Source of the DNA: Mycobacterium paraseoulense | GTDB taxonomy: Bacteria; Actinomycetota; Actinomycetes; Mycobacteriales; Mycobacteriaceae | Length of the DNA: 64,000 bases | Reading direction: 5' to 3' | Assembly: GCF_010731655.1 (NCBI RefSeq) | Contig: NZ_AP022619.1 | Coordinates: forward strand, 3,844,001-3,908,000 | Shown here: positions 24,706 through 26,097 of the stretch, in pieces | How positions within the stretch are numbered: the first letter of the stretch is position 1 | Layout of the letters: every line of letters starts with the position of its first letter | Notes under the pieces: model-generated | What the model was told of the DNA's origin: nothing | The model's database searches: none | The model's input: only the letters and a program-made list of their open reading frames with translations | Made by a program: the position numbers and the translations under genes

Positions 24706-26097
24706 ATGTTGAGCACCGAGGCTTCGACCACACCGACCCGGCTGACCGGCTTTGGCCGCACCGCGCCGTCGGTGGCCGAGGTGCTCTCGACCCGCGATCC
24801 GGAGGTGATCGCCAAGGCCGTCGCGCGGGTGGCCGAATCCGGCGGCCCCAACGGGCGGGGCGTCATCGCGCGCGGGCTGGGCCGGTCCTACGGCGACAAC
24901 GCGCAAAACGGCGGGGGCCTGGTGATCGACATGACGGGCCTGGATCGCATCCACTCGATCAGCGCCGAGACCCGGCTGGTCGACGTCGACGCGGGCGTCA
25001 GCCTGGACCAGCTGATGAAGGCCGCACTGCCGTTCGGGCTGTGGGTTCCGGTGCTGCCGGGCACGCGCCAGGTCACCGTCGGCGGCGCGATCGCCTGCGA
25101 CATCCACGGCAAGAACCACCACAGCGCCGGCAGCTTCGGCAACCACGTGCGCTCGATGGACCTGCTGATGGCCGACGGCAGCGTCCGCACCCTCACCCCC
25201 GACGGTGAGGAGGCCGAGCTGTTCTGGGTCACCGTCGGCGGCAACGGCCTGACCGGGATCGTGCTGCGCGCGACCATCGAGATGACGCCGACGGAGACGG
25301 CGTACTTCATCGCCGACGGTGTGGCCACCAAGGATCTCGACGAGACGGTCGCCGTCCACCTCGACGGCAGCGAGGCCAACTACACCTACTCGAGCGCCTG
25401 GTTCGACCTGATCAGTCCGCCACCCAAGCTCGGCCGGGCCGCGGTCAGCCGCGGCAGCCTGGCCAAGCTGGACCAGCTGCCCGCCAAGCTGGCCAGAAAC
25501 CCGCTGAAATTCGACGCGCCGCAACTGTTGACGGTGCCGAACGTTTTTCCCGTGAGCGCCATGAACAAGCTGTCCTTCATGGCGATCGGCGAGGTGTACT
25601 ACCGGCTGGGCGGCACCTACACCGGCAAGGTCATGAACCTGTCGCAGTTCTACCACATGCTCGACCTGGTCAGCGGCTGGAACAACGCCTATGGCCCAAG
25701 GGGTTTCGCGCAGCACCAGTTCCTGGTTCCGCCGGATGCGATGGACGAGTTCAAGGCCATCATCCGCTGGATCCAGACCCGCGGCCACTACTCGGCGCTG
25801 AACGTCTTCAAACTGTTCGGCCCGGGCAACCGCGCGCCGCTGAGCTTCCCGATGGCCGGGTGGAACGTCGCGATGGACTTCCCCAACAAAGCCGGTATCA
25901 ACGAGTTCCTCAACGAACTCGACCGGCGCGTACTGGAATTCGGCGGCCGGGTCTACACCGCCAAGGATTCCCGGACCAGCGCCGAGACCTTTCACGCCAT
26001 GTACCCGCGCATCGACGAGTGGATCGCGGTGCGCCGCAAGGTGGATCCCTCGGGGGTTTTCGCCTCGGACATGGCCCGACGTTTGGAGCTGTTGTAA
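24706..26097 (+). CDS. dprE1: Decaprenylphosphoryl-beta-D-ribose oxidase DprE1
   Basis: This 463-residue FAD enzyme oxidises DPR to the keto intermediate, the first half of the epimerisation that makes the arabinose donor DPA. The FAD-binding domain shows GLGRSYGDNAQNGGG, VLPGTRQVTVGGAIACDIHG and KNHHSAGSFGNHVRSMDLL. The substrate domain includes FKLFGPGNRAPLSFP followed by GWNVAMDFP. At the position of the M. tuberculosis benzothiazinone-binding Cys387 (GWNICVDFP) this protein has Ala389; the two-residue offset comes from a small insertion near residue 48. ATG 24706 follows TACCCT by 8 nt. dprE2 begins 11 bp after its stop. Confidence 0.96.
   Translation: MLSTEASTTPTRLTGFGRTAPSVAEVLSTRDPEVIAKAVARVAESGGPNGRGVIARGLGRSYGDNAQNGGGLVIDMTGLDRIHSISAETRLVDVDAGVSLDQLMKAALPFGLWVPVLPGTRQVTVGGAIACDIHGKNHHSAGSFGNHVRSMDLLMADGSVRTLTPDGEEAELFWVTVGGNGLTGIVLRATIEMTPTETAYFIADGVATKDLDETVAVHLDGSEANYTYSSAWFDLISPPPKLGRAAVSRGSLAKLDQLPAKLARNPLKFDAPQLLTVPNVFPVSAMNKLSFMAIGEVYYRLGGTYTGKVMNLSQFYHMLDLVSGWNNAYGPRGFAQHQFLVPPDAMDEFKAIIRWIQTRGHYSALNVFKLFGPGNRAPLSFPMAGWNVAMDFPNKAGINEFLNELDRRVLEFGGRVYTAKDSRTSAETFHAMYPRIDEWIAVRRKVDPSGVFASDMARRLELL

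What the first reader, a model, noticed from the sequence alone, without database searches (positions are those of the whole stretch)
25846..25890. DprE1 has Ala in place of the benzothiazinone-reactive Cys
The stretch aligned with M. tuberculosis GWNICVDFP reads GWNVAMDFP, so Cys387 is Ala389 (codon gcg at 25870-25872). Covalent nitro-benzothiazinones form an adduct with that Cys. Ala or Ser there is the known basis of natural or acquired resistance and has been described for M. avium. It predicts intrinsic resistance to BTZ043/macozinone while leaving non-covalent DprE1 inhibitors possible, and it points to an M. avium-complex-like species.
Basis: partly seen in the sequence, partly recalled or inferred. 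Interest (0 to 1): 0.7.

Follow-up and report, generated by a model that had tools for sequence, protein, structure and literature searches.

The report
Swapped domain removes a drug-target cysteine
This mycobacterium has a form of the cell-wall enzyme DprE1 without the cysteine that benzothiazinone drugs bind, which is known in relatives, but the whole drug-binding domain around it appears to have been exchanged between mycobacterial species as a block.

Summary
Codon 25870-25872 (GCG) is Ala389 of an intact 463-aa DprE1, opposite M. tuberculosis Cys387. The direct reading, intrinsic resistance to covalent benzothiazinones, is already known for such enzymes; M. scrofulaceum, a near relative with the same Ala, has a published PBTZ169 MIC >32 µg/ml. 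Ala does not point to the M. avium complex: of 391 typed Mycobacterium genomes 155 have Ala, 236 Cys, none Ser. Nearest named relatives are the M. nebraskense/scrofulaceum group.

The Ala is one of 26 near-fixed differences marking a second DprE1 type. FastTree trees of rpoBC, gtrA, dprE2, aftA and embC need 11-17 Ala/Cys changes, dprE1 3-4; its substrate-binding domain needs 2, with 51 of 52 mycobacterial Ala genes in one clade. Eleven of 11 hand-picked cross-type triplets show recombinant segments, five starting at codons 198-206. Best reading: an alternative substrate-binding domain lacking the cysteine spread among mycobacteria by homologous recombination. Synonymous sites agree but alone do not prove the deepest exchanges. 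Donor and selective force are unknown.

The parts
24706..26097 (+). dprE1, decaprenylphosphoryl-beta-D-ribose oxidase, 463 aa, Ala-type
   Evidence: NCBIfam NF053785 795.5 bits; PDB alignment
25870..25872 (+). codon 389 GCG = Ala, equivalent of M. tuberculosis Cys387
25846..25890 (+). the motif given in the finding, codons 381-395
25300..25947 (+). substrate-binding domain, codons 199-414 (Mtb 197-412); 25 of the 26 type-marking positions lie here
   Evidence: domain limits from a passage of PMC4366402; markers; tree
25318..25917 (+). codons ~205-404: stretch in which the window differs sharply (66-79% DNA identity) from the Cys-type genome G195, while codons 5-204 are 78-85% and the stretch beyond codon 405 is 86-92%
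   Evidence: triplet tests
24246..24674 (+). upstream neighbour, GtrA family (PF04138); its tree does not follow the Ala/Cys type
26112..26873 (+). dprE2 (NF053786, 433.7 bits); its tree does not follow the Ala/Cys type

Best explanation
The window encodes an intact DprE1 in which the Cys that nitroso-benzothiazinones attach to is Ala. Covalent BTZs cannot form their adduct, so the organism should be intrinsically resistant (the chemistry is shown in the literature; this organism is untested). The Ala is one of 26 linked differences that define an alternative, Ala-type substrate-binding domain. That domain descends from one ancestor within the set studied and has been exchanged between mycobacterial lineages by homologous recombination, in segments ranging from about the domain itself to nearly the whole gene, leaving gtrA and dprE2 mostly behind. 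Shown here: one clade of Ala-type domains, conflict with neighbouring and unlinked genes, recombinant segments in chosen triplets, a change of affinity at the domain border on synonymous sites. Inferred: recombination as the cause, a Cys-type ancestor, and resistance as a by-product of a domain changed for another reason.
For: FastTree label changes, columns 376-400 masked: dprE1 3-4; rpoBC 11, gtrA 13-17, dprE2 11-12, aftA 13-16, embC 11-14. IQ-TREE on 76 genomes: rpoBC 12 changes and one Ala clade rejected, p-AU 3e-5; dprE1 DNA 2 changes and the clade that rpoBC shows for 40 genomes rejected, p-AU 2e-9. By part: codons 199-415 need 2 changes, 51 Ala genes one clade at support 100; codons 1-198 need 4, codons 416-463 8-9. 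Third bases of conserved codons: 22 of 23 slow-group Ala genomes lie nearer slow-group Cys genes in codons 1-198, 23 of 23 nearer rapid-group Ala genes in codons 199-415. 11 of 11 hand-picked cross-type triplets gave a segment not reached in 2000 permutations. Resistance: PBTZ169 MIC >32 ug/ml in five Ala-containing or related species including M. scrofulaceum, whose DprE1 has the same Ala and is 96% identical.
Against: Synonymous sites alone reject neither the Ala clade nor the rpoBC grouping, and the 8 rapid-group Cys genomes show no clear switch (5 of 8 nearer rapid-group Ala genes in codons 1-198, 4 of 8 in codons 199-415). Dropping the 26 markers still rejects the rpoBC grouping (p 0.007), but dropping 52 or 82 associated positions does not (p 0.56 and 0.44). 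dprE2 protein needs only 7 changes under IQ-TREE. Three same-type control triplets gave 59, 108 and 136 of 2000 permutations, so some patchiness exists without the type difference. Genomes and triplets were chosen by hand. No donor was found and the Ala-type stem is long (1.1). For the drug reading: PMC10106926 reports good PBTZ169 activity against NTM in mice in spite of the MICs (passage).
Confidence: 0.8

Rival explanations
1. Repeated independent Cys-to-Ala substitutions at a tolerant position, with no exchange of DNA.
For: Cys387 is not needed for activity (PMC6128881 passage). Ala also occurs in four genes outside the Ala-type domain: G181/M. longobardus, G262, G473 and G488, so single changes or separate origins do happen.
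Against: 51 of 52 mycobacterial Ala genes in the tree set share the other markers and one clade with columns 376-400 masked. 120 of 120 Ala proteins and 120 of 120 Cys proteins from two database searches had the matching type.
Confidence: 0.04
2. Convergent adaptation: separate lineages changed the same domain positions under a common pressure, and the protein tree groups them for that reason.
For: The signal is concentrated in the substrate-binding domain. Synonymous sites alone do not reject the rpoBC grouping. The signal is lost when 52 associated positions are dropped.
Against: Third bases of conserved codons in dprE1 need 3-4 label changes, those of dprE2 11-16. They switch affinity at the domain border in 23 slow-group Ala genomes. 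Triplet segments use all informative DNA sites. Dropping the 26 markers still rejects the rpoBC grouping.
Confidence: 0.1
3. Ancient duplication with differential loss: both types once coexisted in a genome and different lineages kept different copies.
For: Some genomes outside the genus have two DprE1-like matches, for example G488 with 73% and 75% copies.
Against: No genus genome had both motif patterns (192 + 143 + 61 with neither = 396). A dprE2 match lies in the same 19.5-kb piece as dprE1 in 100 of 101 genomes of the tree set. The conflict fades inside the gene, which loss of whole copies would not give.
Confidence: 0.05

Closest known systems
Natural BTZ-resistant DprE1 of M. avium and M. 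abscessus (Ala at 387)
   Same: Same enzyme and same residue; covalent BTZs inactive (passages: PMC3206020, PMC9765218, PMC3958311).
   Different: Those passages treat the residue as a single polymorphism. Here it is one of 26 linked markers of an exchanged domain. The window's species has not been tested.
Laboratory Cys387Ser/Gly mutants of M. tuberculosis and BCG
   Same: Loss of the reactive Cys gives BTZ resistance (PMC3958311, PMC6128881 passages).
   Different: Point mutations in a Cys-type enzyme; not a naturally different domain.
Mosaic drug-target genes such as penicillin-binding protein genes of Neisseria and streptococci (recalled; listed only by title)
   Same: Blocks of an essential target gene exchanged between species, altering drug response.
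   Different: Here the block corresponds roughly to one enzyme domain, spans a genus and is older than the drug class; drug selection is not shown.

Membership tests
DprE1 (NCBIfam NF053785) | score above the curated cut-off over the full length | tested here: met
   795.5 bits against cut-off 500, residues 11-462
DprE1 (NCBIfam NF053785) | oxidase activity on decaprenylphosphoryl ribose | not testable with these tools
   needs a purified enzyme
Natural Cys387-lacking, BTZ-resistant DprE1 | no Cys at the 387 equivalent | tested here: met
   Ala389
Natural Cys387-lacking, BTZ-resistant DprE1 | high MIC of covalent BTZs | not testable with these tools
   only relatives have published MICs, for example M. 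scrofulaceum >32 ug/ml
Mosaic target gene | phylogenetic conflict limited to part of the gene, with neighbours following other trees | tested here: met
Mosaic target gene | significant recombinant segments | tested here: met
   11 of 11 hand-picked cross-type triplets at 0 of 2000; same-type controls 59, 108, 136 of 2000; M. longobardus triplets 102, 234, 608 of 2000
Mosaic target gene | support from synonymous sites alone | tested here: inconclusive
   affinity switch in 23 slow-group Ala genomes but not in 8 rapid-group Cys genomes; AU tests reject neither grouping
Mosaic target gene | identified donor lineage | tested here: inconclusive
   long stem, no clear nearest relative
Mosaic target gene | spread driven by drug or natural inhibitor | not tested
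   no selection analysis was run

The most novel reading that the evidence does not exclude
Mycobacteria have two long-lived functional types of DprE1 that differ across the whole substrate-binding domain and exchange that domain as a module. BTZ resistance is a side effect; the real difference is how the domain handles its polyprenyl substrate, its partner DprE2 or a natural inhibitor. Relatives such as M. vicinigordonae (Ala-type) and M. paragordonae (Cys-type) would then differ in response to both covalent and non-covalent DprE1 drugs.
Probability: 0.4. Interest if true: 0.7.

Novelty: new variant of a known kind. Interest (0 to 1): 0.5.

Why it matters
DprE1 inhibitors, covalent and non-covalent, are anti-tuberculosis candidates (PMC9765218 passages). 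If natural resistance rides on an exchangeable domain, then: (1) a species name or growth type predicts response poorly, one codon better; (2) inhibitors fitted to the M. tuberculosis pocket may fail in about 40% of typed Mycobacterium species (155 of 391) for reasons beyond one Cys, in line with the weak non-covalent activity in M. abscessus; (3) an essential gene beside the emb genes has been a recombination target across the genus, which can be tested directly on public genomes.

Tried and rejected
Ala as a marker of the M. avium complex: rejected (155 of 391 typed genomes). Serine variants: none in the 391 typed genomes; the assembly labelled M. aurum (L056) has Ala although a paper gives Ser for M. 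aurum. M. longobardus (G181/L085) as a short conversion tract: a window comparison suggested codons ~361-400, but three triplet tests gave 102, 234 and 608 of 2000 permutations at least as high, so it is not claimed. A biosynthetic or self-resistance island around the extra dprE1 copy of G488: by eye, from ORF translations only, its 19.5-kb neighbourhood looks like ordinary metabolic and regulatory genes; no family search was run on it. Mean synonymous identity over the whole gene does not separate the readings; it did so only when split by domain. Structure prediction was not run. Literature: searches joining DprE1 with horizontal gene transfer, with phylogeny and polymorphism and with homologous recombination and allele, and one on mosaic targets in nontuberculous mycobacteria (10 of 85 listed), showed no title or abstract start reporting exchange of dprE1. 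Only listings were read for this, and most subscription papers are not held.

Full report
Observation. The window is bases 3844001-3908000 of a 6.09-Mb single-contig genome. dprE1 lies at 24706-26097 (+), ATG start, 463 aa. It scores 795.5 bits against NCBIfam NF053785 (cut-off 500), and dprE2 follows (NF053786, 433.7 bits). No second full-length copy is in the genome. Against solved M. tuberculosis DprE1 it is identical at 357 of 461 positions, and GWNVAMDFP stands opposite GWNICVDFP. Mtb Cys387 is therefore Ala389, codon GCG at 25870-25872, and Mtb Val388 is Met390.

What the residue means. DprE1 reduces nitro-BTZs to nitroso compounds that bind Cys387; the Cys is not needed for activity (PMC6128881 passages; PMC3958311 passages). 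Ala in M. avium and Ser in M. aurum are given as causes of natural resistance (PMC3206020 passage), and Ala in M. abscessus likewise (PMC9765218 passage). In PMC10106926 (section 3.1 read) PBTZ169 MICs are >32 ug/ml for M. scrofulaceum, avium, intracellulare, abscessus and chelonae, and 0.01 ug/ml or lower, or reported as <0.016, for M. tuberculosis, kansasii, marinum, gordonae, xenopi, fortuitum and gilvum. Of these 12 species I could check four by name: M. scrofulaceum (L014) and M. chelonae (L082) have Ala; an M. marinum and an M. tuberculosis protein have Cys. A result against a simple reading: the same paper states excellent activity of PBTZ169 against NTM in mice (passage). For non-covalent drugs, M. 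abscessus gave a TBA-7371 MIC >100 uM and an OPC-167832 MIC of 5.2 uM, against 1.1 nM reported for M. tuberculosis (passages); uptake differences may contribute.

Which organism. Over about 7.4 kb the nearest named record is M. nebraskense (91.4%); unnamed strains, M. europaeum, M. scrofulaceum and M. parascrofulaceum follow at 90-91%. The source is a relative of that group, not shown to belong to any of these species; the tool may leave out records very near the window. In 396 genus genomes, drawn evenly by the tool, the Cys pattern is in 192 and Ala-Met in 143. Of the 61 with neither, 12 are Ala-Leu, 44 are Cys with a different residue after DF, 2 are unresolved (G106 partial, G392 divergent) and 3 had no dprE1 match (84-85% complete). 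That is 236 Cys, 155 Ala and 0 Ser in 391 typed genomes. No genome had both patterns, since 192 + 143 + 61 = 396.

A domain type, not a point change. I fetched neighbourhoods of 100 genomes chosen by hand for completeness and spread (92 Mycobacterium, 8 other genera) and added the window: 93 mycobacterial dprE1 genes, 52 Ala and 41 Cys. With G181 set aside, 51 Ala and 41 Cys genes differ almost completely at 26 positions: codons 16, 206, 207, 210, 217, 219, 235, 283-285, 297, 306, 318, 323, 324, 327, 337, 343, 344, 346, 355, 358, 359, 384, 389 and 390 (threshold my own). All but codon 16 lie in the substrate-binding domain (Mtb 197-412; PMC4366402 passage), several in or beside its flexible regions (269-297, 316-330). 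Of 240 database proteins found with one query of each type (the best 120 of each search), 120 Ala proteins were all Ala-type and 120 Cys proteins all Cys-type. In 282 locus rows, some genes fetched twice, four genes had Ala without the Ala-type domain: G181/M. longobardus, G262, G473 (other genus, intermediate) and G488 (other genus). No Cys was seen in an Ala-type domain. In these rows residue 390 is Met, Leu or Phe beside Ala, and Val or Leu beside Cys. Loss of the Cys thus goes with a bulkier neighbour, perhaps a packing compensation (inference).

Conflict with the species history. With columns 376-400 masked, FastTree trees of dprE1 need 3-4 changes of the Ala/Cys label; rpoBC needs 11 (80 genomes), gtrA 13-17, dprE2 11-12, aftA 13-16, embC 11-14, depending on letters and genomes used. 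IQ-TREE on 76 mycobacterial genomes: rpoBC needs 12 changes and rejects one Ala clade (p-AU 3e-5). dprE1 DNA needs 2 and rejects the 40-genome clade that rpoBC shows, which I call the slow group by its named members, not by growth data (p-AU 2e-9); dprE1 protein also rejects it (p 1e-37). dprE2 protein needs 7 changes and rejects an Ala clade (p 2e-73). Dropping the 26 markers leaves 2 changes and still rejects the slow group (p 0.007). Dropping 52 leaves 2 changes and does not reject it (p 0.56); dropping 82 gives 7 changes and p 0.44.

Where the exchange sits. Windows of 390 bp give 13 changes in gtrA, 4-8 from the gtrA end through the first ~200 codons, 2 in each of the six windows spanning codons 117-461, 6-10 across the dprE1/dprE2 junction, 12 in the dprE2 windows and 12-19 further on. 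By part: codons 1-198 need 4 changes and reject neither grouping (p 0.45, 0.40). Codons 199-415 need 2, with the 51 Ala genes one clade at support 100 and the slow group rejected (p 4e-35). Codons 416-463 need 8-9 and reject neither (p 0.11, 0.39). Mean protein identity of slow-group Ala genes to slow-group Cys genes is 0.832, 0.710 and 0.883 in the three parts, and to rapid-group Ala genes 0.778, 0.847 and 0.865. On third bases of conserved codons, 22 of 23 slow-group Ala genomes are nearer slow-group Cys genes in codons 1-198, and 23 of 23 nearer rapid-group Ala genes in codons 199-415. The 8 rapid-group Cys genomes show no such switch (nearer rapid-group Ala genes in 5 and 4 of 8). These genomes share ancestry, so the 23 are not independent cases. 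AU tests on such sites reject neither grouping. Label changes on them are 3-4 for dprE1 and 11-16 for dprE2.

Single cases. The window and the Cys-type genome G195 share 78-85% DNA identity in codons 5-204 and 86-92% beyond codon 405, but 66-79% between. G009 (Cys) matches its Ala relatives G098 and G292 at 85-91% in the dprE2, aftA and embC proteins but 73-74% in DprE1; it matches the more distant Cys genome G082 at 85% in DprE1 and 72-79% in those three. Of 17 hand-picked triplets, 11 of 11 cross-type ones gave a segment not reached in 2000 permutations, five of them starting at codons 198-206, others reaching into gtrA or dprE2. Three same-type controls gave 59, 108 and 136 of 2000. Three tests of M. 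longobardus gave 102, 234 and 608, so its suspected short tract is not supported.

Origin. Of 23 loci from other genera (L121-L144 without L126), 21 have Cys and 2 Ala, so Cys is probably ancestral (inference). These were the best-matching loci, not a random sample. The Ala-type domain has a long stem (1.1) and no clear nearest relative, so no donor is named.

Novelty. Ala at 387 and its effect are known. The searches, of which I read only the listings, showed no report of exchange of the dprE1 domain. Mosaic target genes are a known kind in other bacteria (recalled).

Noticed in passing
window 32170-32975 (+): An ArsR-type regulator (PF12840/PF01022) and an AHSA1-domain protein (PF08327) lie between the genes I take for embC and embA (names by position, recalled). 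Nine of 100 fetched neighbourhoods have both and two more have the second alone.
   Followed up: partly
L056 dprE1 (3001-4410): The assembly labelled M. aurum has Ala at the 387 position, while PMC3206020 gives Ser for M. aurum. Either strain or label differs.
   Followed up: no
L085 and L232 (M. longobardus, G181): Ala-Met in an otherwise Cys-type dprE1 inside the Mycolicibacter group; a recombinant tract is not supported by triplet tests.
   Followed up: partly
L149 (G262): Ala-Leu in a Cys-type DprE1 (0 Ala-type, 13 Cys-type of 14 markers): probably a separate origin of the Cys loss in Mycobacterium.
   Followed up: partly
L283 / G488:C1:514249-515628: A genome of another genus has a dprE1 with Ala-Phe and no dprE2 match in its 19.5-kb piece, besides a second copy on another contig. 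Its relative G475 (rpoB 99.1% in DNA) shows Cys.
   Followed up: partly
P0041 and P0136: M. vicinigordonae DprE1 is Ala-type (14 of 14 markers) and M. paragordonae Cys-type (0 Ala-type, 13 Cys-type of 14): a natural pair with opposite predicted BTZ response (names; types).
   Followed up: partly
second matches of G416, G420, G451, G457, G458, G482, G498 and G467: Several genomes of other genera carry a second DprE1-like gene at 59-64% identity to the query; residue 387 was not read there.
   Followed up: no
PMC10106926: PBTZ169 is reported as active against NTM in mice although in vitro MICs are >32 ug/ml for M. avium and M. abscessus. Unexplained.
   Followed up: no
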